Shown: piece by piece, positions 582-63,264 of the stretch | Layout: each line of letters begins with the position of its first letter | Position numbering within the stretch: the stretch's first letter is position 1 | Source: Prostheceraeus crozeri | Lineage: Eukaryota > Platyhelminthes > Polycladida > Euryleptidae | Direction of reading: 5' to 3' | Assembly (NCBI GenBank): GCA_907163375.1 | Contig: CAJQUW010010416.1 | Location: 1-64,000, forward strand | Length of the DNA stretch: 64,000 nt | The notes under the pieces: generated by a model | What the model was told of the DNA's origin: nothing | Databases searched by the model: none | The model's input: only the letters and a program-made list of their open reading frames with translations | Program-made: the position numbers and the translations under genes

Positions 582-1886
582 CTAGCCTTTAAAATCCCTA
601 GGAAGACACCTCCACGCACTTTTGATCACAAAATGAGAAATTGAATGGTCAGATGACAAAGAAGAAGTGCTTCGGGTAACATCTCCATTTTGAAGGACTG
701 CAAATTGAAATATCTGTGTTGTTCCTGTGCGATGTTTAAACATCCAAACTCCAATACCAAGAGACACAATAATCATCACTGCTGCTACTCCGATGACGAT
801 TGGCATGATTTGCGTTGCAGAGCTTTCAATTTGAAGGAATATGCTGGCGGTATCCCTTCCACCATCATTGACAGCACTACAATTCCATTCTCCATTATGA
901 GCGTCCTTTGCATTCAGGATGGTCAGTAGATATTGAAATGCGGTTCCTCCTGTTTGAGAGATAAGAAACGACGTGGAGTCATTTTTGATTCTGACTCCAT
1001 CCTTCCACCAAGACATTGCGCCAATAGGATCAGAGAAGACATGGCAGACAAGAGTGACATTGTCTCCAGCCTTTGCGGTGATGCTTGAATTGTTGGCTGT
1101 GACTTCTGGAATGCATTGAAAGTCTTCAGGTTTAAGATCGATGATTCGTTTGTCTTTTAGGCGAAATGGCGACATACATGTTCCATAAGATCTATCAGAA
1201 TATATATTAGCCACGAACGAGCTATTCATCCATCGAATGCGACAGTCACAATTCCATGGATTGTCAAAGCTGGAAAGCTGGAACAACCTCATTGTGTTCA
1301 GATCTTCATCAATTCCGTCTGGAAGTGTCGTCAGGCTGTTGTTTGAAAGAAGAAGGACATTTAAATTCCTTAAACCAGAAAATGAATGTTTGTGCAATTT
1401 CAAACCTCCAACTGTGCTGCTGAGGTCAAGCTTCGAAAGCTTCCTCAAGTTCTTGAACCAATCATTCGGAATTGCTCCAAGAGGATTGTTGCCGAGGTAT
1501 AGCAGCCACAGATTTGTAAATGGAGTGAAAACAGATGCATTTAATCCTTCACCAATCGTCAAGCGGTTTGAATTGAGGAGAAGATGCCACAGACTTCTCA
1601 GTGGTTTGAAAGCTCCTGAAGTGATTGTTTGAAGTTCATTGAAACTGAGATCAAGTATTCTCAACCCGGAGCTGTTCTAAGTTGTAAATGAGTTATTTGT
1701 TAATTTTGATATTTTGTTTTCATCAAGATGAAGGGATGTCACGTTTCCCCATCGATTATTTGGTACAGATTTCAAATTCAATTTTCTGCATTGTACGCCA
1801 ATGCCCAATTTTCCACATCCATCATTTCCACTTGTTCCTGCACACGCAACAACAATGAGAAACAAGATCTTTATCAATTCAAACAT
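582..1886 (-). pseudogene. LRR-Ig transmembrane protein, copy 1, broken by an in-frame stop
   Basis: This is a paralogue of the intact gene at 16084-17292, in the same orientation and with the same domain order: signal peptide, cysteine-rich LRR cap, about six leucine-rich repeats, C-terminal cap (NPWNCDCRIRWM), one Ig domain (VTLVCHV ... GEWNCSAVND) and a transmembrane helix near the end. The first Met of the signal peptide is at 1884-1886. The frame stays open on both sides of a single TAG at 1677-1679. The intact copy has TGG (Trp70) there, so this is one G-to-A change, not a frame loss. A 5-nt difference near 676 puts the tail in another frame, giving about 30 extra residues after NGDV that copy 2 lacks. 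An uninterrupted frame of 360 codons follows the TAG, so decay is recent. It is either a young pseudogene or an N-terminally truncated protein without signal peptide. Confidence 0.8.
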
Positions 1887-16083: not shown

Positions 16084-17292
16084 TCAGTCCACATCTCCAT
16101 TTTGAAGGACTGCAAATTGAAACATCTGTGTTGTTCCTGTGCGATGTTTAAACATCCAAACTTCGATACCAAAAGACACAATAAACATCACTGCTGCTAC
16201 TCCGATGATGATTGGCATAATATGCGTTGCAGAGCTGTCGATCTGGAGTAATATGCTAGCTGTAGCTTTTCCACCATCATTGACAGCACTGCAGTGCCAT
16301 TCTCCATTATGAGCGTCCTTTGCATTCAGGATGGTCAGTCGATAATGAAATGTGGTTCCTACTGTTTGAGATATAAGGAACGACGTGGAGTCATTTTTGA
16401 TTCTGACTCCATCCTTCCACCAAGACAGTGCGCCAATGGGATCTGAGAAGACATGGCACACAAGAGTGACATTGTCTCCAGCCTCTGCAGTGATGCTTGA
16501 ATTGTTGGCTGTGACTTCTGGAGTGCATTGAAAGTCTTCAGGTTTAAGATCGATGATTCGTTTGTCTTTTAGGCGAATAGGAGAGGCGCATTCTCCATAA
16601 GACCTATACTTCATCTTAATGAACGGATCTTTCATCCATCGAATGCGACAGTCACAGTTCCATGGATTGTCGATCATGGATAGGATGATGTACCTCATCG
16701 TGTTGAGATCCTCTTGCATTCCTTCTGGAAGTGTCGTCAGGCTGTTGTTTGAAAGACGAAGGACCTCTAATTTACATAAACCAGAAAATGAACGTTTGTG
16801 CAATTTCAAACCTCTAACTGTGCTGCTGAGGTTAAGCACCAGAAGTGTCCTCAAATTCTTGAACCAATGATTCGGAATTGCTCCAAGAGGATTGTTACCA
16901 AGGTATAGCAGCCACAGATTTGGAAATGAAGTGAAAACAGATGCATTTAATCCTTCACCAATCGTCAAGCGGTTTGAATTGAGGTGAAGATACCGCAGAC
17001 TTCTCAGTGGTCTGAAAGCTCCTGAAGTGATTGTTTGAAGTTCATTGAAACTGAGATCAAGTCTCCTCAAGCCGGAACTGTTCCAAGTTGTGAATGAGTT
17101 ATTTGTTAATTTTGATATTTTGTTTCCATGAAGATTAAGGTATGTCACGTTTCCCCATCGATTGTTTGGTACAGATTTCAAATTCAATTTTCTGCATTGT
17201 ACGCCAATGCCCAATTTTCCACATCCATCATTTCCACTTGTTCCTGCACGCGCAACAACAATGAGAAACAAGATCTTCATCAATTCAAACAT
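16084..17292 (-). CDS. LRR-Ig single-pass membrane protein, copy 2 (intact)
   Basis: This is a 402-residue type I membrane protein, probably a cell-surface recognition or adhesion receptor. Residues 1-20 are a signal peptide. The LRR N-cap has Cys24 and Cys33, and about six leucine-rich repeats span 48-205 (for example RRLDLSFNELQTITSGAF). The C-cap has Cys213, 215, 235 and 256. One Ig domain lies at about 258-352 with Cys279 and Cys334. A transmembrane helix is at 359-381, followed by a tail of about 20 residues. The start chosen is the ATG at 17290-17292, which begins the hydrophobic signal; the frame is open further upstream to 17448, but that extension is not signal-like and differs in copy 1. 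The gene appears intronless here. The order LRR-Ig-TM is shared by AMIGO/LINGO-like families. The tail has no signalling motif I can name. Confidence 0.85.
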   Translation of the reverse strand: MFELMKILFLIVVARAGTSGNDGCGKLGIGVQCRKLNLKSVPNNRWGNVTYLNLHGNKISKLTNNSFTTWNSSGLRRLDLSFNELQTITSGAFRPLRSLRYLHLNSNRLTIGEGLNASVFTSFPNLWLLYLGNNPLGAIPNHWFKNLRTLLVLNLSSTVRGLKLHKRSFSGLCKLEVLRLSNNSLTTLPEGMQEDLNTMRYIILSMIDNPWNCDCRIRWMKDPFIKMKYRSYGECASPIRLKDKRIIDLKPEDFQCTPEVTANNSSITAEAGDNVTLVCHVFSDPIGALSWWKDGVRIKNDSTSFLISQTVGTTFHYRLTILNAKDAHNGEWHCSAVNDGGKATASILLQIDSSATHIMPIIIGVAAVMFIVSFGIEVWMFKHRTGTTQMFQFAVLQNGDVD

Positions 17293-17539
17293 TTCCTCAC
17301 GTACTTTCAAGAAACGTTGCCAAAGGTGATGAAAATATCTGAAAGGGAGAGAAGGACAAAGCTCAATGAGCAGAAGTTGAAATTTAAAGCGTCGTATGCA
17401 TGTCGTTCTATGAAAATAAGTAAGCAAGTAAAGTGTATATTTCAGCACAAACGAAAATCAAAATCAATATTGTTTCATTGATACAGAGCGATGAGGCGGC
17501 AAATAAATGACATATACGAAGAACATTTACAAAGTGATC

Positions 17540-19488: not shown

Positions 19489-21258
19489 TCAGAAGCACAC
19501 TAACTTCATCCGCATCTTCGTGCAGCCTTCCAAGCGACACCTGGCGGCATTTTTCAAACTGTAATCATATTTTGGCCAATGAGAAATTGTGTCATATCGG
19601 ATTGAACTGTTTGGCACTACACTTGATCGATTGAGAGATTGGGTCGATGAGTTGAGCACATCTTGGGTGTCGGCATCCAAGTTCGACTGGCTTGAAAGAA
19701 GCTCGGCTGCGATGGATAATCGAAAATCACTGAAAGTCGAGTCACTGTGGAATGATCGATAGACAATCCGCGAATTGTATAGCATGTAATCGAAAAGTCT
19801 GAAAACTAATCGTCGATACCATTTCTTTGAGCGAAATGGAATATGGAATTGTGATATCATCATATCTGCAAAATCCACGCTTCCCATGAAGGAATTCCAT
19901 TGTCTGACAATAGCTGGGACTGGGATCTCTTTGATCTGTTTGGTTCTCCGATTGTATCTCTTGCATGAAGTAACTGAATCTTTGCCAACAAAATTGGAGC
20001 ATAGCAGCACTCGCTTATTATCATACCATGCCAAGGCTGTAATTCTACCCGATCCATGAGAGTAACTTTTGTTATCAATGAGTCCACGTGTTTTATTCAT
20101 TGCCTTTTCAGACATCAGATTGACTTCATTCAATCGATTTTCTCTCATTGTCCCGAGACATTGTCCGAGATCATGCAGTGCTTCGAATAGCGGCAATGTA
20201 CCAAACCAATTGTCAAAGTAGATTTCCGTATCAGCTGGAAATCCTTGAATCATTCGCCAAACAACCAGCGATGACTTGCTGAAATGTTTTGGCTGATCTG
20301 CAGATTCTCCAACATTAGTAGCTGATCGAGATCGACTGACAAACAATTTCACTGGACCAGGTGTGTCTTTTCCGGTATACCACTCTACTCGATAGATGAA
20401 GCCACTTGTACCTACACAGGCAAAACTTTTATAGCCATGTTTTACAGGTTTCTTTGACAAATATTGTGTCATGCCCTCTGGTGCAGTTTTGCATTTGAAT
20501 GTCACCATCTGTTCATCCACTGTCACTCGTGCCTCTGGTTTGACAACATTGAATGAATTATTCATCATATCCACAAGCATTTGGATTTTGTACAATTTGT
20601 TATAGCCTGGTGAGCCTTTCTTCGGTTCCAATACAGGGTCTCCAAAGTGGAGACAGGACAAGATTTCTTCGAATGTATTCTTGGAAATATTATCGGCTAG
20701 TGGTTGTCTGGAGAACCGTGCCCAATATTTCGCGGTACCAGATAAGCCAGATGAGATGAGATGAGATGAGATGAGATGAGATAAGATGAGGGCACCAATA
20801 AATTTCAAAAAATAAACCAGGTCTACTTTGCGACATTTTAGGTTCTTGAATTCACGATATAAGTTGCACTGGAAAAACATTTCTGCAATGTTTTCTTCTG
20901 TAAAGTATAATTTCTTGAAGATCTCGTGAGGCGTACTGTTCTCACTAACCAATTCTTGATAACTGTCGGATAATTCTAGTCCGGCTCCTGCAATATTAGC
21001 AGTATCAAAATGATTTCCATCCAAGCATGGCATGTTTTCTCTTGTCCATTTTCGTCTGTGTGAAGTCGGTCGCTCAATGTCAGCTTCGTCATCCACAACC
21101 GAACCATCGTCCTCGCTATCAGAGGGAATTTCGACTATCGTTATTTCATCAGTGTTTCTAATACGAGTCGAATAATAATTGGCGTCAAGACGTCGACGTT
21201 TAGGTTTAGGCTCACGCGTGCATTCAGTTTGACACGAAACATTGCCAGTTTCTTTCAT
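19489..21258 (-). CDS. piggyBac transposase
   Basis: This is a 589-residue DDD transposase that would cut and paste its own element at TTAA. After an acidic N-terminus, the catalytic aspartates are Asp248 (VTVDEQM), Asp349 (IYFDNWFGT) and Asp462 (GSVDFADMM), with the family's FRSKKWYRRLVF block at about 475-486. Two oddities are visible. Residues 159-170 (LSHLISSHLISS) are encoded by an expanded GATGA microsatellite at about 20750-20790, which kept the frame. The C-terminal cysteine-rich domain starts (CRLEGCTKMRMKLVC) but ends at once, because the frame runs into the 40-bp repeat, whose TTCTGA supplies the stop. The usual Cys/His domain is therefore truncated. Catalytic residues are intact; activity is doubtful. 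The start overlaps the upstream frame by ATGA. Confidence 0.9.
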   Translation of the reverse strand: MKETGNVSCQTECTREPKPKRRRLDANYYSTRIRNTDEITIVEIPSDSEDDGSVVDDEADIERPTSHRRKWTRENMPCLDGNHFDTANIAGAGLELSDSYQELVSENSTPHEIFKKLYFTEENIAEMFFQCNLYREFKNLKCRKVDLVYFLKFIGALILSHLISSHLISSGLSGTAKYWARFSRQPLADNISKNTFEEILSCLHFGDPVLEPKKGSPGYNKLYKIQMLVDMMNNSFNVVKPEARVTVDEQMVTFKCKTAPEGMTQYLSKKPVKHGYKSFACVGTSGFIYRVEWYTGKDTPGPVKLFVSRSRSATNVGESADQPKHFSKSSLVVWRMIQGFPADTEIYFDNWFGTLPLFEALHDLGQCLGTMRENRLNEVNLMSEKAMNKTRGLIDNKSYSHGSGRITALAWYDNKRVLLCSNFVGKDSVTSCKRYNRRTKQIKEIPVPAIVRQWNSFMGSVDFADMMISQFHIPFRSKKWYRRLVFRLFDYMLYNSRIVYRSFHSDSTFSDFRLSIAAELLSSQSNLDADTQDVLNSSTQSLNRSSVVPNSSIRYDTISHWPKYDYSLKNAARCRLEGCTKMRMKLVCF

Positions 21259-21653
21259 TGCAACTTCTTCACCAAATTACAAGTAGATATCTTGCTATCC
21301 CTTTCTTCCCTGTTGGATTCATGACGGTTTCTGTCAATGTCAGTATCGATTCGCTTAATGTCAGTATCGATTCGTTGGGCGTCAGGGTCGATTCGGTGGG
21401 CGTCACCAATGTCTCGGCCGATGTCAATGTCCATTCGATGGATGTCACTATCGATTCGGTCAGTGTCAGTCAGTAGTGATTTTGCAGAACTTTCTGAATG
21501 AGGTGAAGAAACATTCACCATATCACCTTTGCGGGCACGTAAAAACGTTTTCTTAACAGTCTGACGCCATTCATTGCCAAAGCCATCAAAATCTACACGA
21601 TATGAATTCTTGCAAACCGTTACTACATCGTGAGTGTGTGATTGTGTTAGCAT
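21255..21653 (-). CDS. Upstream frame of piggyBac with RIDxDI repeats
   Basis: A 132-codon frame directly upstream of the transposase, whose stop overlaps the transposase ATG (ATGA at 21255-21258). It contains an imperfect repetitive stretch of RIDTDI/RIDSDI-type units. No known domain. It may be an N-terminal extension separated by a frameshift, or non-functional leader sequence. Confidence 0.4.
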   Translation of the reverse strand: MLTQSHTHDVVTVCKNSYRVDFDGFGNEWRQTVKKTFLRARKGDMVNVSSPHSESSAKSLLTDTDRIDSDIHRMDIDIGRDIGDAHRIDPDAQRIDTDIKRIDTDIDRNRHESNREERDSKISTCNLVKKLQ

Positions 21654-46982: not shown

Positions 46983-48781
46983 TTCTCATACAATGATGAA
47001 AGTCATCCCAGTAGCCATTTATAATAGAATATAATGCTTACTAATTTAAATTATTAGTTAAAGTAGTCCTAAGGAGGACTGATGGCGTTCTCCAATCCGC
47101 AAGTGTACAAAAGCAATGCTACTGTAACCATTGGATTAATCAGTTCTTAAAAGAACTCAATGTAGCTTTCTCGTGGCAACGAATTAAAATTGATCAGCTT
47201 TGGCCCAATATCTGGTAAAAATGGAAATCTTAAGACTTGTAATACTACTCATTCTTGCTGTTAATATACTAATACCATAGATTCCAAACACTACCGTATA
47301 CACGTTCAAAACAGACGTCTAATATACTGTACCGACTACAGATGCTGATAGTGGAAATAGAATAAGACAATGGTCACCATAGGTTAAGGAAATTAGAAAT
47401 GGATATTATAAAACAACAGGAAACCGATGAATAAAAATTGGAAAAGTGGAGGTAAAATATGGAAATACAACGATGCTACTACACTGATTACAAGTGAACT
47501 ATATCTGACACTACTCGAAGTGGATAATGGTAAGAGTAGATAAGTGGAAAGTGGATAATGGAGGTAAACAATAGAACTACAATGACACTCTACTACACCG
47601 AAAGCAATGAAACTATACACACTATACCTAAGACTACACATGGAAAATACTATTTCTTTACTTGAATTTGTTATCGCCAGTTTCTTCATCCGTCTATAGT
47701 ACTTTATGTAATTCCACATTTCTTCATTTGAATTACAATACATCGACCACTACTTCAGTTACCGATTAAGGGATATAAAACATAATACTGCAGTCCGTCA
47801 GTCATCAGCAGGTACTCGTCTAGTTGTGTTTCGACCCCTAACCTGAACACTCAAACCCAGACGAGCGGGGTCCCACACATAGTGGCTGACAAAATACTGA
47901 ATAGGTAGTGATATGTCTTGAAAGATATGTCACAAAGATAAATCAGACATAATTCAATTGTTGCGTTTCCCACATGTAAACAGATCCTGTCATTAAATTC
48001 ATCCCATCAATAAATACAGTATGCTTTTTGCGATCCTCACATGTAAACAAATCCTGTACATCAATCTTTGCCTTTTCGATTCCCTCAAGTAAACAGATCC
48101 TGTTCATCCTCGAATCCCATAAAGATGTAATCGCTGTGTGAAAAATATGTAATCCGCCTTTACACAAACTTCGCCTCATACATCAAGACTTAACAATGGG
48201 AGCTCTCTCATCTCCCGTAAGCCACGCTAAGCGCTCTGTATTCACTCTTCACCGCCCACCCCCCGTATGATGGCTACAAGTCATTGTTAGTCGTTTATTC
48301 ACCTATGCAGCAAGGCATTAAGGAAAATGTGAGTCGTTTGTTGGTCGCGTGCCTCATTGAAATTCACAGAGTGAAGTGAATTGTCGAGCCGAGAAAAGAC
48401 CATATTTGTGAAGCGATTCATTATGCCTTGTGAGAGCCTTTTCTGTGTAACTCATCAAGTCATGCTGAGAATAACCTCTAGATTTCATGATATTTAGTGT
48501 CTTGTTAGTTTTGTGTACAGCGTCTTGTAACTTCGAGCATATTCTACAATATCTGACTACCTGCGACGCGAAAACATGAAGGGCCATCTGTAATGGGATC
48601 ATGCTCTCCGGAAAAGTCAGTTGCACTACAGAGAAAGAGAAGTCATCTACCTTGTGATATACTGAAGTTCTCAAGCTGTTCTGTGAGATTTGTATTTTCA
48701 CATCAAGGTAAACTACCTCTTTATTGTTATCACCATTTCTCTCCGCCAACAAGTCAGGTGGATAAATTCTTTGAATCAACG
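46983..48781 (-). repeat. Pseudo-LTR, downstream copy
   Basis: It contains the last about 140 codons of the RT frame and the whole 3' region. I see one base difference from the other copy (about 47540, AGTAGATAAG versus AGTGGATAAG). Two incidental frames (116 and 78 codons at 47393-47743 and 47943-48179) are open in both copies but disrupted in the older fragment at 8797, so they are not called genes. Confidence 0.9.
47813..47881 (-). ncRNA. Candidate pseudoknotted RNA, second copy
   Basis: Identical to 9119-9187 over the whole segment, on the strand of its element. The four pairing blocks GACCCC, CTCGTCT, GGGGTC and AGACGAG are all intact. A third copy is at 52179-52247. Confidence 0.4.
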
Positions 48782-49817
48782 AATTAAAGTGTTTATAATT
48801 GACAACACATATATCGTCTATGTATCTTGATGTAGGTGATAACAAGCGTGCTAAATGATATTTCTTAGTTTTTATCAAATTTTGCATAAAAACATATTCG
48901 CAGTGTAAGAGGAATAGGTCAGCTAGGAGTGGACTAGAATTTCCTCCCATTGGAATGCCTTTAATCTGCCTGAAAACTAAATTACCGAATGTGACGTAGG
49001 TCTGTGATAATAGGAAATGTATGGCTTCTTTTAACTTCTGTTTATCAAAACAGTGATAACCACTATATTTTTTCATTGAGCAAAAGGACTTATCATATCC
49101 AATGCAAATAAATTTTCTATTTGAGGAATTAAACACCAAATCCATAATAGCGAATATGTAATCTTCAATCAATTTTTGATCAAGATTCGTATATAAGGTT
49201 GAAAAATCGAAAACTTGCAATGAATGAACTTGTGTCGAATTTAATCTGTGTAGAAATTCTTGTGTGGACTTTATACTCCAGAAGCAATCGAAACCGCTGT
49301 TTCTCTTAATTGCCATACAATATCTCTGAAAATTGTCACGCAAAATACTTAAGGCTGAATTTACTTTGATGGAAAGCTTTTTCGATGTGCATTGTCGTGC
49401 TCCTGCTATGAATCTAAATTTGCATGGAGTTTTGTGAAATTTTGGAATCCAATATAATTTTGGTAATTTTCTGTCTTTTTCACAGACAGATAGTTTAAAC
49501 TCGCTTTTCATAATTGTTGTGTGTTGTTCAATTACATTCTGCGCTAAAATTTGCTCTGGACCATAGGTATCATTACCCGATATGTTCGACGTGGAAATAT
49601 CAATTCCCAACTCGGATAAGAGAATTTGGAGATAAAACTTTTTGCAAATGAAGGCATAATTATTAGATGCTTTATCAACTGGCGTAATTATGACGTCATT
49701 CTGCAATTCTTTCAGATTTTTACCCATTTTGACATTAATCTTGTGTCGATTAGTGTGTGCGCGAAATCTATTCGAGGATTTCTTAGCAAGATATATTCGA
49801 TCTTTAATCAGTGCCAT
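48354..49817 (-). CDS. Penelope-like reverse transcriptase (Naiad type)
   Basis: A frame of 487 codons containing a complete PLE reverse transcriptase. It has DVIITPVDKASNNYAFICKK near the N-terminus and KLPKLYWIPKFHKTPCKFRF. The catalytic motifs follow: A as FDFSTLYTNL, B as KGIPMGGNSSPLLADLF and C as RYIDDICVV with two Asp. Then comes YLDVKI, and it ends without a GIY-YIG domain. The reading frame is open above the first ATG, through KKEKLEATLFSAWKSRI, up to a point overlapping the end of the upstream endonuclease frame. That means one protein may originally have spanned both. All catalytic residues are present. Confidence 0.9.
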   Translation of the reverse strand: MALIKDRIYLAKKSSNRFRAHTNRHKINVKMGKNLKELQNDVIITPVDKASNNYAFICKKFYLQILLSELGIDISTSNISGNDTYGPEQILAQNVIEQHTTIMKSEFKLSVCEKDRKLPKLYWIPKFHKTPCKFRFIAGARQCTSKKLSIKVNSALSILRDNFQRYCMAIKRNSGFDCFWSIKSTQEFLHRLNSTQVHSLQVFDFSTLYTNLDQKLIEDYIFAIMDLVFNSSNRKFICIGYDKSFCSMKKYSGYHCFDKQKLKEAIHFLLSQTYVTFGNLVFRQIKGIPMGGNSSPLLADLFLLHCEYVFMQNLIKTKKYHLARLLSPTSRYIDDICVVNYKHFNSLIQRIYPPDLLAERNGDNNKEVVYLDVKIQISQNSLRTSVYHKVDDFSFSVVQLTFPESMIPLQMALHVFASQVVRYCRICSKLQDAVHKTNKTLNIMKSRGYSQHDLMSYTEKALTRHNESLHKYGLFSARQFTSLCEFQ

Positions 49818-49870
49818 GATTCTTGATTTCCACGCTGAGAATAAAGTAGCCTCAAGCTTCTCTTTCTTAC

Positions 49871-51142
49871 TTATTTTGTAATATGCTCATCTAATGAATT
49901 ACTAATTTGAGTTGTTATGGCACTCCAACTAAGGCTTTTGGGGATTCTGTGTTTGGTACCAAAACTGAAGAGTTGACGTAAGTCTTCATCATCCACAATA
50001 TCCAGATCACCCGTTATTACGTGACCATAATGTGGGTAAACAAAAGATTGCCTCTTGCTACATGAGCATGGATTGTTCATGATGTGCATCACATCCTGAA
50101 ACTTTAGGTTATTCAAAAAACGCCCATAATTGCAAAACATCAATGCAGTGGGTTTATCTAATTTATAGAATATTTTCGGTGGATAACGTTCTTGAATTGT
50201 GCTTGGAATTAGCTTGCACACACTGTGATCGCAGAATATAGACATGAGATTGAGTGAGTCTATTGTCTGAGATTCGAACGGGATGATTATGGTTGCTCGT
50301 TCTTTCACATTTTTGTTCTCCGAGTCTAGGTTAAGTTTATTTTGAATGTATGCTGTTAGTACAAATGTCATCATGTTTGCCTCATCCCTTGTCTTGCCTA
50401 GAATGGCTCTTAGCATAGTTTTAGGGAGAGATTTTAGAAGATGATAAAACCTTGACATCCTACGCGTCTCAAAAGAATCTTGTAATTCTTGATAGGTATT
50501 GTCAAGTTCCATAATACCTGAGCTTTTTCTACCCGATTTTCTTATTCCATGACTCCTTTTTCGTCTGCTAATCGGATAACTAAAAAATTGATCATTGGAT
50601 ATGGACTGCTGAGATACACATCCACCTCCCAAAACTCTATCATTCAAACCCAAGGGGTATAAGGTATTGAGCATCTTGATATGCATGTCTTCCTTGCGGT
50701 TGAGCTCTCTGTTTATCTCTTCCGGTGATATGTATATATTGTCATCAACATGATCAATAATTTGCAATTCAACATCAGTCCAAGAATGATGATCTTGCTT
50801 AAAGTGATTGCTAAGATATGTGTTTAAGTGACCTTTTAATACTGAATGACGATGACCATTTAATCTACAATGTAGCGGTTGCTTTGTCTGTCCTACATAT
50901 TGCATTCCACATCTGCTACATGATATAAGATAAATAACATTTCTACTTTTACAAGTAAAAACACCTGGCTGATCAAAGATAAACCGGTTGCCTGTACTGA
51001 AACTTTCGTAGCAATTTTCGGTATTCAAAGATTTACAGCAAAGACATCTATTGCTACCACAAAATCTAATGTTTTTCAAAGTAGAGGGCGCTATCCACTC
51101 CTTCGCATTAACGCTGAACACTTTTCGTACCATATAAACCAT
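49871..51142 (-). CDS. N-terminal GIY-YIG endonuclease region of the Naiad-type element
   Basis: A frame of 423 codons upstream of the RT. Residues about 28-45 hold a cysteine cluster (FCGSNRCLCC), then the GIY-YIG nuclease at about 68-105 (VIYLISC ... QYVGQTKQPLHCRLNGHRH). A long linker follows, and the C-terminal block GHVITGDLDIVDDEDLRQLF leads into the RT. The nuclease would nick the target for reverse transcription. The frame ends in TAA at 49871-49873, while the RT frame overlaps it in another phase, so a single frame shift would fuse them. The start is uncertain; the first ATGs lie at 51142 and slightly downstream. Confidence 0.85.
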   Translation of the reverse strand: MVYMVRKVFSVNAKEWIAPSTLKNIRFCGSNRCLCCKSLNTENCYESFSTGNRFIFDQPGVFTCKSRNVIYLISCSRCGMQYVGQTKQPLHCRLNGHRHSVLKGHLNTYLSNHFKQDHHSWTDVELQIIDHVDDNIYISPEEINRELNRKEDMHIKMLNTLYPLGLNDRVLGGGCVSQQSISNDQFFSYPISRRKRSHGIRKSGRKSSGIMELDNTYQELQDSFETRRMSRFYHLLKSLPKTMLRAILGKTRDEANMMTFVLTAYIQNKLNLDSENKNVKERATIIIPFESQTIDSLNLMSIFCDHSVCKLIPSTIQERYPPKIFYKLDKPTALMFCNYGRFLNNLKFQDVMHIMNNPCSCSKRQSFVYPHYGHVITGDLDIVDDEDLRQLFSFGTKHRIPKSLSWSAITTQISNSLDEHITK

Positions 51143-51348
51143 GAGAAAATTTGCCAGAGCCTCGAAAAGAGCGAGGAATTTGCCGAGGTTGGACTTTCAA
51201 ATTCCTGCCATCTATTGGCATTTGCGCCTAAGTGACTATGTATGATAATTATTAAGATGTGGGACAAATTAGGCATTTCGCCAGCTAGCAGAGGTCCAGT
51301 AGCGGGGTCGTGAAACCACCTGCATCTGAAGACATACTATCCAAGTAA
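51143..51348 (-). other. 5' leader of the Naiad-type element
   Basis: About 200 bases between the upstream pseudo-LTR and the GIY-YIG frame. It contains a short inverted repeat (CTCGAAAAGAGCGAGG) near 51160. It is not present elsewhere in the window. Confidence 0.5.
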
Positions 51349-53147
51349 TTCTCATACAATGATGAAAGTCATCCCAGTAGCCATTTATAATAGAATATAA
51401 TGCTTACTAATTTAAATTATTAGTTAAAGTAGTCCTAAGGAGGACTGATGGCGTTCTCCAATCCGCAAGTGTACAAAAGCAATGCTACTGTAACCATTGG
51501 ATTAATCAGTTCTTAAAAGAACTCAATGTAGCTTTCTCGTGGCAACGAATTAAAATTGATCAGCTTTGGCCCAATATCTGGTAAAAATGGAAATCTTAAG
51601 ACTTGTAATACTACTCATTCTTGCTGTTAATATACTAATACCATAGATTCCAAACACTACCGTATACACGTTCAAAACAGACGTCTAATATACTGTACCG
51701 ACTACAGATGCTGATAGTGGAAATAGAATAAGACAATGGTCACCATAGGTTAAGGAAATTAGAAATGGATATTATAAAACAACAGGAAACCGATGAATAA
51801 AAATTGGAAAAGTGGAGGTAAAATATGGAAATACAACGATGCTACTACACTGATTACAAGTGAACTATATCTGACACTACTCGAAGTGGATAATGGTAAG
51901 AGTGGATAAGTGGAAAGTGGATAATGGAGGTAAACAATAGAACTACAATGACACTCTACTACACCGAAAGCAATGAAACTATACACACTATACCTAAGAC
52001 TACACATGGAAAATACTATTTCTTTACTTGAATTTGTTATCGCCAGTTTCTTCATCCGTCTATAGTACTTTATGTAATTCCACATTTCTTCATTTGAATT
52101 ACAATACATCGACCACTACTTCAGTTACCGATTAAGGGATATAAAACATAATACTGCAGTCCGTCAGTCATCAGCAGGTACTCGTCTAGTTGTGTTTCGA
52201 CCCCTAACCTGAACACTCAAACCCAGACGAGCGGGGTCCCACACATAGTGGCTGACAAAATACTGAATAGGTAGTGATATGTCTTGAAAGATATGTCACA
52301 AAGATAAATCAGACATAATTCAATTGTTGCGTTTCCCACATGTAAACAGATCCTGTCATTAAATTCATCCCATCAATAAATACAGTATGCTTTTTGCGAT
52401 CCTCACATGTAAACAAATCCTGTACATCAATCTTTGCCTTTTCGATTCCCTCAAGTAAACAGATCCTGTTCATCCTCGAATCCCATAAAGATGTAATCGC
52501 TGTGTGAAAAATATGTAATCCGCCTTTACACAAACTTCGCCTCATACATCAAGACTTAACAATGGGAGCTCTCTCATCTCCCGTAAGCCACGCTAAGCGC
52601 TCTGTATTCACTCTTCACCGCCCACCCCCCGTATGATGGCTACAAGTCATTGTTAGTCGTTTATTCACCTATGCAGCAAGGCATTAAGGAAAATGTGAGT
52701 CGTTTGTTGGTCGCGTGCCTCATTGAAATTCACAGAGTGAAGTGAATTGTCGAGCCGAGAAAAGACCATATTTGTGAAGCGATTCATTATGCCTTGTGAG
52801 AGCCTTTTCTGTGTAACTCATCAAGTCATGCTGAGAATAACCTCTAGATTTCATGATATTTAGTGTCTTGTTAGTTTTGTGTACAGCGTCTTGTAACTTC
52901 GAGCATATTCTACAATATCTGACTACCTGCGACGCGAAAACATGAAGGGCCATCTGTAATGGGATCATGCTCTCCGGAAAAGTCAGTTGCACTACAGAGA
53001 AAGAGAAGTCATCTACCTTGTGATATACTGAAGTTCTCAAGCTGTTCTGTGAGATTTGTATTTTCACATCAAGGTAAACTACCTCTTTATTGTTATCACC
53101 ATTTCTCTCCGCCAACAAGTCAGGTGGATAAATTCTTTGAATCAACG
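51349..53147 (-). repeat. Pseudo-LTR, upstream copy
   Basis: A tandem 5'-truncated copy whose 5' edge (53147) falls inside the RT coding region and abuts the LINE. It carries its own C-terminal RT fragment (52720-53145) and the pseudoknot segment at 52179-52247. Confidence 0.9.
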
Positions 53148-60842: not shown

Positions 60843-60874
60843 TGATATTTATCAAATCTCAACAGATGTAACCA

Positions 60875-60916
60875 CCACGAGACATGTTTCGGCCTGTTGG
60901 GCCTCATCAGTCGTGG
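60875..60916 (-). ncRNA. Hammerhead ribozyme, type I, unit 1
   Basis: Minus strand, in order: stem I arm CCACGA, core CTGATGA, stem II GGCC/GGCC with loop CAACA, GAAA, two-base-pair stem III (AC/GT, loop AT), triplet GTC, stem I arm TCGTGG. All core positions match the consensus and stem I pairs over six bases. Predicted cleavage is between 60881 and 60880. The tiny stem III resembles that of tandem or dimeric hammerheads in retroelements. Confidence 0.93.
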
Positions 60917-60958
60917 GTAGGTTTGAACCAGCGACGTTGGAGCTAGAGGGCGCGCAAG

Positions 60959-61040
60959 CATACCCTCTAACCACAAGGCCACCGGACCATCTGTTGAGAG
61001 CGTGAATTAGCCAGGAAGGCACTGCTTTAACGCAGGCACG
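60959..61040. repeat. Inverted repeat arm of the hammerhead repeat
   Basis: The block from GCATACCCTCTAACCACAAGG to CTTTAACGCAGG is present again in reverse complement at about 61278-61355. The tRNA-like head of a unit has therefore been inverted next to the second unit. Confidence 0.85.
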
Positions 61041-61176
61041 TGGAGGGCGGAATGCTTTCGCAATCACTTAATACCGCATCCGAAATTGAGGCGCTTCACG
61101 CAGGCGCTACTCATTACATGTTTAGACAAATAACCTGGCAATTGATAAATTTATCAGATCTCAACAGATGTAACCA

Positions 61177-61218
61177 CCACGAGACATGTTTCGGCCTGTT
61201 GGGCCTCATCAGTCGTGG
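61177..61218 (-). ncRNA. Hammerhead ribozyme, type I, unit 2
   Basis: Identical over its 42 bases to the ribozyme at 60875-60916. Predicted cleavage between 61183 and 61182. Identity of both copies argues for recent amplification or selection. Confidence 0.93.
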
Positions 61219-61277
61219 GTAGGTTTGAACCAGCGACGTTGGAGCTAGAGGACGTACAAGCATACCCTCTAACCACA

Positions 61278-61355
61278 AGGCCTGCGTTAAAGCAGTGCCT
61301 TCCTGGCTAATTCACGCTCTCAACAGATGGTCCGGTGGCCTTGTGGTTAGAGGGT
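61278..61355. repeat. Inverted copy of the tRNA-like head
   Basis: Reads CTGCGTTAAAGCAGTGCC onward to GGTTAGAGGGTATG on the plus strand, complementary to 60959-61040. It abuts the cut end of unit 2. Confidence 0.85.
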
Positions 61356-61557
61356 ATGTAAAAGACCGACCGCTTTCTGCCTATGTCTAGGCTTCTCAAG
61401 GACTAAATGAAATTTATTTACATCATAGAATCATCAAATGTCATCCAGAATTACATGCATGTCATGTATAGATAGATACAGACTTCAAATGATCAAAATC
61501 TAATTGGGTAGGTATGAGAAGGAGGATAGATATTTAGTCAGATGTAGGCTGTCATTA

Positions 61558-63035
61558 TCATAGATCTTGGTTTAGCAATGGTTGTAGGATTCTTATACAG
61601 ACCTTTTTCTTTTCTTCTCTGTAACTTTTCCCACAGTTGGCGGGTAACTTTAAAAGCGGCATCACATCGAATTTAGGCTCATAGTTTCCAGAACAGTCAT
61701 AGATGTGGTGACTGACTTTCAGAATTCTATGTTGTTCATCGTTAATTTGTTGTCTGTGTGTTCGAGTTCTTGCACGTAGTGTATCTCCCGATTGTCCGAC
61801 GTACGAGTATAATGCTTTGCAATTACGGCACTGTAGTACATAAATTACATCTTTAGAAGCACAGTTCATATTCGCTTTTATATGGAATGTTTTGGCGGTG
61901 ATAAAAGTTTTCCTATTATGATCGACGGACAACATTGGCATCTTGGATCTTCACATTTTGTGACACCATCTAACGGAGTTCGATTTCTTTTTGAAATAAG
62001 TTGTAATTTTGACGGTGGTTGTTTAAAAGAAGACCGTATTTTATAATTCTTAAATGTGGTTTTTAGTTTCAGATTTGAAAAAGCTGGATTGATAATGTCT
62101 TTAAATACATTAGGATTATTGGGATTATATGTGCGAGAATATGGAATGATATTCTTAGTGTCATTTTCATTCTCAAGTTTTACATCACTTCTTGACTTCT
62201 TGATAGCATCTTGTATCAATTGCTGTGGATATCCCAAGTTTCTGAGTCGTGTTTGCATTTCTTTAAGTCTTGTTTCCAGCATACTTTCTTTTGAGATGAT
62301 TCGTTGAATACGATTGGCTAGTGTATATGGGATATTTCGCAATATATGCCGAGGCACGAAGAAAATGAAACATAATTGTGACTATCTGTCGGTTTAGTAT
62401 AAATATCTCTTTCAATTTTTCCATTTTCTTTATAAACTAAAACGTCTAAGAAATTTATTTTATCCGAACTCCTTTCAGACGTAAATTTAATTTTATCATC
62501 AATAGTATTCAAAAATGTTAAAAACCCATCAATATCACAAAAGTCATTGTCCCAAATCACGAAACAGTCATCTAAGTATCGTATCCAGCCAGCAGAAAAC
62601 AATTCATACGTAGATTGTGTTGAGATGTCTTTCACAAAAGTGTACATGTTCTCTTCCATGAAACCCATAGTTAAGTTTGCGTAGCTAGGGCCTACCTTAG
62701 TACCCATAGCAGTACCTAATGTTTGCAGAAAAACTTGTGACTCAAAGCTGAAGAAGTTATTTCGAAGAACAAACAATGTTCATCCCCTCAATAATAAATT
62801 CAGTAGTAAATCTTGCAGCAATCTTGTCTCTATACTTCGTTACCCAATATTCAATCGCATTAATTCCTAACGAGTGGTTGATATTAGTATATAAAGATGT
62901 CACGTCGAAAGATACAAACATGGAATTTTCAGAGGTAGTATTTGGTATTTTTGAAATGAAGTCGATCGAATCTCTACAATAGCTTTTCAAGGAAGAGAAA
63001 TTAGGGGTCGAATAAACATGACATCATTACGAGCG
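61558..63035 (-). pseudogene. Penelope-like retroelement, canonical order, 5'-truncated
   Basis: RT motif A is FVSFDVTSLYTNI (62757-62990). Motif B is seen as GTAMGTKVGPSYANLTMGF and motif C as WIRYLDDCFVIW (62318-62776). DIYTKPTDSHNYVSFSSC follows, then a linker with CEDPRCQCC (61878-62357). Last is a GIY-YIG endonuclease with DVIYVLQC and YVGQSGDTLRARTRTHRQQ (61558-61941). Neighbouring segments overlap in different frames, so at least three frameshifts interrupt it. The amino-terminal part is missing and sequence changes near 63035. Confidence 0.85.
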
Positions 63036-63042
63036 GATTACA

Positions 63043-63059
63043 TATATATATATATATAT
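63043..63059. repeat. (TA)n microsatellite
   Basis: Short TA run at the junction between two Penelope-like elements. Confidence 0.9.
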
Positions 63060-63111
63060 TGCAGCAAAGTGTACCCAGTCTCTTCATTGATATGTGAAAG
63101 ATAAAAAACAC

Positions 63112-63160
63112 TGGTTCCGGACTAGTTTCGATTCATCTATTGAATCATCCTCAGCGGTCA
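63112..63160 (-). ncRNA. Hammerhead ribozyme, type I, of the terminal Penelope-like element
   Basis: Minus strand: stem I arm ending ACCG, core CTGAGGA (fits CTGANGA), one unpaired T, stem II GATTC/GAATC with loop AATAGAT, GAAA, two-base-pair stem III (AC/GT, loop TA... read as CTAGT), triplet GTC, stem I arm CGG. Stem I has three firm pairs, then a small internal loop. It lies about 105 bases 3' of the GIY-YIG frame at 63265. Confidence 0.8.
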
Positions 63161-63264
63161 CAAAGTTATAAAATTGCATAAAATTCACATTATATACAAA
63201 TTTACATCTGTTCACGAGTCAAGGTCATCAAGCATGGTTCCACTCTACGTCATCGATAATGATG

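What the first reader, a model, noticed from the sequence alone, without database searches (positions are those of the whole stretch)
60843..61355. A repeat that fuses a tRNA-like Pol III promoter to a complete hammerhead ribozyme, in two 302-bp-spaced units
Seen: A box, B box and a hammerhead with perfect core and six-base stem I, twice, exactly 302 bases apart on the same strand. Known: schistosome Sm-alpha repeats and animal retrozymes combine hammerheads with small mobile repeats, and tandem units release circular RNAs. Inference: this is an active or recently active ribozyme SINE that can make 302-nt monomers. The inverted tRNA-like head beside unit 2 is unexplained.
Basis: partly seen in the sequence, partly recalled or inferred. 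Interest (0 to 1): 0.88.

Follow-up and report, generated by a model that had tools for sequence, protein, structure and literature searches.

The report
Hammerhead retrozyme with Penelope-style insertions
A small non-coding mobile repeat whose RNA should cut itself with a hammerhead ribozyme turns out to be inserted in this animal genome in the way Penelope-type jumping genes insert, which points to who moves it and suggests that both DNA strands are copied from one RNA circle.

Summary
The two hammerheads, 302 nt apart on the minus strand, are real. They are one decayed insertion of a high-copy 303-bp tandem family in the same 2.05-Gb genome (at least 326 matches), best filed as an animal non-LTR retrozyme. 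The 'tRNA-like Pol III SINE' reading is not supported: no Rfam tRNA or ARAGORN hit, and A/B boxes at chance level. The 'unexplained' inverted head is the clue. 31 of 38 other loci are head-to-head double arrays, so both outer ends are sense 3' ends. Of 74 end segments, 70 stop within a few bases of one of two sites 28 nt apart (alpha, beta). All 28 insertions with both ends read carry one alpha and one beta. They lie in (TA)n (22) or have 12-16-bp target duplications (6). Opposite arms share variants (38 of 46 unit pairs identical; 247 of 2143 between loci). A resident Penelope-like element shows the same pattern: head-to-head arms, (TA)n, one 'tail' end and one tail-less end (4 of 4 readable). 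Best reading: hammerhead-made RNA circles copied by Penelope-type machinery primed on both target strands. The helper was proposed in print (PMC7229834, PMC7761336), without these ends in the passages I read. Circle and enzyme are inferred.

The parts
60847..60980 (-). unit 1 of the retrozyme (direct-repeat copy), ending at the alpha end at 60847
   Evidence: the repeat finder D1, 134 nt, 97%; alpha end as in other insertions
60861..60926 (-). hammerhead ribozyme 1 (core 60910-60881, predicted cleavage between 60881 and 60880)
   Evidence: motif scan; Rfam HH9 33.5 bits, below gathering
61149..61282 (-). unit 2 of the retrozyme (direct-repeat copy)
61163..61228 (-). hammerhead ribozyme 2 (core 61212-61183)
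61121..61148 (-). 28-nt 'tail' between the alpha site (61149) and the beta site (61121) inside the array; at one end only of each of the 28 two-armed insertions with both ends read elsewhere
   Evidence: alignment of 74 end segments
   Evidence: 79 nt, 100% inverted copy of 60959-61037; family architecture
60857..60999 (-). 12-bp stem TCTCAACAGATG/CATCTGTTGAGA enclosing the box-bearing hairpin and the hammerhead
   Evidence: inverted repeat I4; predicted fold, z = -6.9
63051..63200 (-). 3' part of a resident Penelope-like element: minimal hammerhead by eye (about 63158-63117), then the tail and the long end in (TA)n
   Evidence: sequence; family of at least 42 matches; hammerhead not among Rfam matches at E<=5
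61558..62980 (-). decayed Penelope-like coding fragments (RT and, by eye, GIY-YIG) directly upstream of the retrozyme
   Evidence: ORFs; sub-threshold RVT_1 hit E 0.0024 for 62318-62779, no GIY-YIG hit for 61558-61950; no Pfam hit at E<=0.001

Best explanation
It is a member of a recently active animal non-LTR retrozyme family. A multimeric transcript is cut by the hammerhead (helix III is weak, so probably as dimers) into 303-nt units that are closed to circles. A Penelope-like (GIY-YIG) endonuclease/reverse transcriptase cuts both strands of an AT-rich target, mostly (TA)n, and primes cDNA from both strands on the same RNA circle, from one strand at the alpha site and from the other at the beta site 28 nt away. 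Each cDNA runs round the circle a variable number of times, and the two are joined head-to-head in the middle, leaving inverted tandem arrays with 12-16-bp target duplications. The window holds one decayed insertion: one arm of 1.44 units with an alpha end, and a 79-nt stump of the other arm. Shown by sequence: the family, the ends, the pairing rule, the duplications, the shared variants, and the same architecture in a resident PLE. Inferred: cleavage, circularity, the enzyme and the order of steps.
For: Copies and arrays of period 303, up to 16.2 units. 255 hammerhead-region matches in 39 sources and 28 in 6 extensions. 70 of 74 end segments at alpha or beta. 28 of 28 read pairs mixed, P = 3.5e-8 under random pairing of the ends. 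Target duplications of 12-16 bp in 6 of 6 non-TA pairs, 0 of 200 shuffles each. Opposite-arm units identical in 38 of 46 pairs, mean difference 0.87 against 3.67 between loci; 0 of 20000 arm permutations as low. Resident PLE: 2570-bp tandem unit, 811-aa stop-to-stop frame with RVT_1 E 1.5e-11, head-to-head arms, one long and one short end in 4 of 4 insertions with both ends readable. Published PLE hallmarks match: inverted pLTR, TSD, tail at one of the inverted pLTRs, simple AT-rich targets (PMC3846280, passages); PAc cleaves and extends both strands and initiates RT internally (PMC11167929).
Against: The driving PLE family is not identified: the tails of the resident PLE and the retrozyme are not alike beyond chance (1420 of 5000 shuffles). 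For the PLE PAc, hammerhead cleavage was not needed for insertion in vitro, unprocessed RNA was the main substrate, and no reads ended at the cleavage site (PMC11167929 passages), which speaks against a required cleaved circle there. Target duplications (12-16 bp) are longer than the 8-10 bp in the A. vaga passages. A homogeneous linear multimer could also give identical arms. L044 and L045 show no inverted arm, and L026, L041, L046 are unresolved. 33 private variants are in one arm only, 26 of them in one scrambled L021 unit. No empty site was shown (one search found nothing; two other queries stayed unanswered). GIY-YIG in the PLE frame is by eye only (no Pfam hit). No RNA data. The window copy lacks a target duplication.
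Confidence: 0.8

Rival explanations
1. A tRNA-derived, Pol III-transcribed SINE carrying a hammerhead, moved by a LINE.
For: Stretch GTGGCCTTGTGGTTAGAGGG looks (by eye) like a tRNA D-arm and GGTTCAAACC like a B box; no TTTT run within a unit on either strand.
Against: No tRNA family among Rfam matches at E<=10, no ARAGORN hit, box match at chance level. Both outer ends are sense 3' ends in head-to-head arrays, and the ends abut the target at fixed internal sites without poly-A.
Confidence: 0.07
2. Head-to-head arms arise by LINE-style twin priming, by fold-back template switching, or by self-priming on an antisense template (the last proposed for A. vaga Penelope in PMC3846280), on a linear multimeric transcript; no circle, and perhaps no PLE.
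For: The geometry of two primers is that of twin priming; junctions show short overlaps or filler (window GCC overlap; repeated CAACAGATGG in L019). PAc used unprocessed linear RNA in vitro.
Against: One alpha and one beta in 28 of 28 read pairs; fold-back or self-priming alone does not explain a second fixed end on a target duplication; same tail/no-tail pairing in the resident PLE (4 of 4); near-identity of units across arms.
Confidence: 0.12
3. Satellite arrays spread by recombination, extrachromosomal circles or assembly folding, not by retrotransposition.
For: Tandem arrays and long palindromes are known assembly hazards; some loci are complex (L012, L029, L030).
Against: Fixed ends in 70 of 74 segments with differing flanks, target duplications in 6 of 6 non-TA pairs.
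Confidence: 0.03

Closest known systems
Animal non-LTR retrozymes (coral, mussel, axolotl; PMC7229834, two parts of six and passages read)
   Same: Type I hammerhead in 150-450-bp tandem repeats, high copy, highly self-paired unit; helix III like axolotl HHR_Amex1 (one pair plus palindromic tetraloop)
   Different: Here the insertions show fixed double ends, head-to-head arms and a tail rule, which the parts read do not describe; hammerhead below Rfam gathering
Penelope-like elements (A. vaga Penelope PMC3846280, passages; PAc PMC11167929, passages and part 1 of 2 of the main text)
   Same: Inverted copy at the 5' side, target duplication, AT-rich simple targets, a tail of about 30 nt at one end, RT start near a hammerhead
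   Different: The retrozyme unit is about 303 nt, encodes no RT or endonuclease, has a fuller hammerhead, and its tail letters are unrelated to the resident PLE's
Schistosome Sm-alpha repeats (recalled, not read here)
   Same: Small repeat with hammerhead and proposed Pol III boxes
   Different: Boxes here are not better than chance; insertion architecture of Sm-alpha not compared
Plant LTR retrozymes (PMC4918200 in search listings only; passages of PMC7761336)
   Same: Two hammerheads delimit the region that becomes a circle
   Different: Type I not type III hammerhead; no LTR frame, PBS or PPT was looked for here beyond the repeat analysis

Membership tests
animal non-LTR retrozyme | type I hammerhead with canonical core | tested here: met
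   core and stems; HH9 33.5 bits is below the Rfam gathering score of 52
animal non-LTR retrozyme | small tandem repeats of 150-450 bp, many copies | tested here: met
   period 303, up to 16.2 units; at least 326 matches
animal non-LTR retrozyme | target duplications, when present, longer than 4 bp | tested here: met
   12-16 bp in 6 of 6 non-TA pairs; none at the window copy
animal non-LTR retrozyme | self-cleavage and linear/circular unit-length RNA | not testable with these tools
   no RNA data or bench work
tRNA-derived SINE | tRNA-related 5' head with internal Pol III promoter | tested here: not met
   no tRNA model or ARAGORN hit; box match reached by 1173 of 2000 random units
tRNA-derived SINE | single-orientation insertion ending in a LINE-like or simple-repeat tail | tested here: not met
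   34 head-to-head junctions in 31 of 38 loci; 70 of 74 end segments stop at alpha or beta
Penelope-like insertion architecture | head-to-head inverted partial copy | tested here: met
   34 head-to-head neighbours against 3 plus-to-minus neighbours (L012 and L030 across a TA tract between insertions; L029 unresolved)
Penelope-like insertion architecture | tail of about 30 nt at one of the two ends | tested here: met
   28 of 28 pairs with both ends read
Penelope-like insertion architecture | simple AT-rich target | tested here: met
   54 of 70 classified ends run into (TA)n (tallied by eye)
Penelope-like element (autonomous) | encodes RT and GIY-YIG endonuclease | tested here: not met
   no stop-to-stop frame of 130 aa or more overlaps 60847-61358; it could only use a PLE in trans
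Rfam Hammerhead_HH9 (RF02275) | score at or above the gathering threshold | tested here: not met
   33.5 against 52 bits

The most novel reading that the evidence does not exclude
Penelope-type machinery copies a single hammerhead-made RNA circle from both cut target strands at once, one strand always starting at alpha and the other at beta, so the enzyme works as an asymmetric pair on one circle. The resident PLE follows the same one-long-one-short rule, so PLEs themselves, with hammerheads in their pLTRs, may transpose through circular RNA: tandem pLTR structure and tail would then both be products of rolling round a circle.
Probability: 0.25. Interest if true: 0.9.

Novelty: new variant of a known kind. 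Interest (0 to 1): 0.76.

Why it matters
Which machinery moves animal retrozymes is stated as open: PMC7229834 names LINEs or PLEs, PLEs being a strong candidate, and PMC7761336 says the repeats show no conserved motif that would reveal the helper (passages). The insertion ends seen here are such a mark. They tie non-coding ribozyme repeats to Penelope-type insertion, explain inverted arrays and tandem length in one step, and make predictions that can be checked in any genome with retrozymes (one alpha and one beta end, shared variants across arms) and in vitro with a purified PLE protein.

Tried and rejected
tRNA/Pol III head: tested and not supported. The D-arm-like stretch was noted by eye only; three tRNAs of the genome were read but no formal comparison was made. 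Reading the two units as chance neighbours or as a two-LTR retrozyme: dropped once the genome showed period-303 arrays. Search for the hammerhead pattern in bacterial/archaeal genomes: 0; in viral contigs: 1 hit, L001, glanced at and not followed. Phage records: no match for the 154-base unit. Sequence likeness of the retrozyme tail and the PLE tail: not above chance. Lower divergence of the hammerhead than of the rest of the unit: 5/1512 against 46/6608, p = 0.15, not significant (the first count was inflated by a scrambled L021 unit). Covariation: not attempted, copies too alike. Literature: the sequence gave only papers whose listed titles concern other subjects; for the idea none of the listed titles and abstract beginnings reports Penelope-type ends on retrozymes, but the listings were capped (for example 20 of 49, 15 of 338) and only open-licence PMC papers are held. 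PMC4209133, given in reference lists as Cervera and De la Pena 2014, is not held. Empty-site search: one search did not find even its own query; some searches did not complete.

Limits of the counts: the 38 loci are all contigs other than the window's in the listing, which scored 39 of 847 candidates and did not print every match, so they lean towards well-matching copies. The 74 end segments were anchored on the outermost hammerhead of each array, so ends without a hammerhead nearby are not in them (L011 left, 5' ends of one-armed copies). Classification was by eye on A3 with a script listing as aid. 4 of the 74 (L012:814, L029:1228, L031:4645, L042:3859) were not ends. L025 left lies at a contig start.

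Full report
What is in the window. Two identical hammerhead motifs lie on the minus strand, cores 61212-61183 and 60910-60881, 302 nt apart. Rfam's HH9 model gives 33.5 bits to each, E 2.7e-6 for the short stretch, but below its gathering score of 52, so nothing shows in the gathering scan of the window. A strict core-plus-stems scan finds 2 in the window and 1 in 60 random 64-kb sequences. The inner stem I has 6 pairs and stem II 4. Helix III is one A-U pair with the palindromic loop CAUG; PMC7229834 (part read) describes that form for axolotl HHR_Amex1, which cleaves poorly alone and better as a dimer. The direct repeat is 134 nt (60847-60980 / 61149-61282, 97%); beyond it a 79-nt stretch (60959-61037) returns inverted and 100% identical at 61280-61358.

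The promoter reading. The head has stretches that look like A and B boxes, but the summed mismatch of 5 is reached by 1173 of 2000 random units (box consensuses recalled). No tRNA family is among the Rfam matches at E<=10 and ARAGORN finds none. The head is predicted to fold as a long hairpin next to the hammerhead, both closed by a 12-bp stem: the 156-nt unit has -70.6 kcal/mol, z = -6.9 against 300 shuffles; the 302-nt circle has -105.0, z = -4.3, 0 of 300 shuffles as low. Pol III transcription is possible but has no support here.

The family. After repeated busy answers the own-genome search worked: G000 has 2.05 Gb in 14165 contigs; 326 matches from 39 scored of 847 candidates, a lower bound. 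Arrays have period 303; L016 holds one of 16.2 units at 99%. I fetched all 38 other contigs of that listing by place and six extensions. A model of the hammerhead region gave 255 matches in the 38 loci plus the window and 28 in the extensions (with some overlap at the seams).

Insertion architecture. On the + strand the arrays run minus copies first, then plus copies, that is head-to-head: 34 such junctions in 31 of the 38 loci. Three plus-to-minus neighbours occur; in L012 and L030 a TA tract lies between two insertions, and L029 is not resolved. Seven loci (L026, L028, L035, L041, L044, L045, L046) and the window have hammerheads on one strand only; of these L028 and L035 have short inverted stretches, L044 and L045 none found, L026, L041 and L046 are not resolved, and the window has its 79-nt stump. 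Because both arms face outwards, both outer ends are sense 3' ends. I aligned 74 end segments and listed them by script: 70 stop within a few bases of alpha (GATTTGATAAAT, 34) or beta (TTGTCTAAA, 28 nt further, 36), and 4 are not ends. 54 of the 70 run into (TA)n. Both ends are known for 28 insertions, and all 28 have one alpha and one beta; random pairing of 28 alpha and 28 beta ends would give this with P = 3.5e-8. The six pairs outside (TA)n (L010, L014, L015, L021, L038, L043) all have direct duplications of 12-16 bp at the ends, reached in 0 of 200 shuffles each. In L010 the duplication overlaps 8 nt of the element at alpha, which suggests annealing of the target to the RNA there (inference).

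One template for both arms. 67 units from 28 loci (27 fetched plus the window) were aligned. Units of opposite arms of the same insertion are identical in 38 of 46 pairs (mean 0.87 differences), same-arm units in 20 of 22, units of different loci in 247 of 2143 (mean 3.67). Re-pairing arms among the 17 two-armed loci never reaches the observed mean in 20000 permutations (permuted mean 3.26). Thirteen private variants are present in both arms (L013, L030, L031, L032, L033, L037, L047); 33 are in one arm only, 26 of these in one scrambled L021 unit. L037 shows spacing 304 and the same score in all ten of its hammerhead units, five per arm. The simplest source is one RNA circle copied from both sides; a homogeneous linear multimer is not excluded.

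The resident Penelope-like element. Upstream of the retrozyme lie decayed fragments (61558-62980) with a sub-threshold RVT_1 hit (E 0.0024), and the 3' end of another element with a minimal hammerhead recognised by eye (about 63158-63117; not among Rfam matches at E<=5). Its family has at least 42 matches. One tandem locus (L066) has a 2570-bp unit and an 811-aa stop-to-stop frame with RVT_1 at E 1.5e-11 and, by eye only, a C-terminal GIY-YIG-like part (no Pfam hit for it, no PDB relative at E<=1; NCBIfam gives weak RT hits far below their cut-offs). Of eleven loci looked at (ten fetched, plus the window's own), four have both ends readable: window/L054, L069, L070, L072. All four have one long end (...CTTTGCTGCAATAT) and one short end (...TTATCTTTCA) about 35 nt apart, head-to-head, in (TA)n. 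In L069 a retrozyme alpha end shares the TA tract with the short end of the PLE. So the pattern of the retrozyme is that of a PLE in the same genome, though the tail letters are not alike and the helper family is not identified.

Match with print. [quoted passage not shown] its authors favour self-priming on an antisense template for the palindromic junctions. PMC11167929 (passages and part 1 of 2 of the main text) shows a PLE protein that cleaves and extends both target strands and starts copying inside the RNA, and connects this to the tail; [quoted passage not shown] PMC7229834 and PMC7761336 (passages) leave the helper of animal retrozymes open and favour PLEs. None of the passages I read describes these ends on a retrozyme, and none of the listed titles or abstract beginnings of searches does; the listings were capped and only open-licence papers are in that library.

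The window copy. Its alpha end is at 60847; the other arm is a 79-nt stump ending at 61358 without a beta end, and no target duplication was found. Two tandem hammerheads remain intact in sequence, so a transcript could still release a 302-nt RNA; that is inference.

Verdict. It is an animal non-LTR retrozyme by the sequence tests that could be run, and it works like a non-autonomous Penelope passenger. Circle and enzyme remain inferred.

Noticed in passing
L074 (C2063:27000-27800) and L075 (C11748:41000-41800): A different hammerhead (RF00163, 47 bits, above gathering); five places have this score, the two read are near-identical over the stretch, with inverted repeats around the hammerhead, and look unrelated to this family.
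   Followed up: partly
G000:C5448:137252-169116: A long tandem array of tRNA genes with spacing of about 580 bp, making up most of the 63 listed tRNA matches.
   Followed up: no
window 46983-53147: Frames with a sub-threshold GIY-YIG hit (49871-51196, E 0.0045) upstream of a sub-threshold RVT_1 hit (48354-49886, E 0.013), i.e. endonuclease before RT as recalled for Naiad-type PLEs; a 1799-bp, 99.94% direct repeat (46983-48781 / 51349-53147) looks like a partial tandem.
   Followed up: partly
window 582-1676 and 16084-17457: Two similar LRR/Ig-like frames in an 87% duplication; LRR and Ig domains were confirmed by Pfam for the second only.
   Followed up: no
window 19489-21276: Open transposase frame (DDE_Tnp_1_7, E 4.3e-45), PiggyBac-like from recall.
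   Followed up: no
L019, about 1960-2010: Head-to-head junction with filler made of repeated near-copies of CAACAGATGG, as if the join slipped on its own template.
   Followed up: partly
L044, L045: One-armed insertions: L045 joins a 5' end directly to (TA)n; L044 has an alpha 3' end and a 5' end that also lies near the alpha site.
   Followed up: partly
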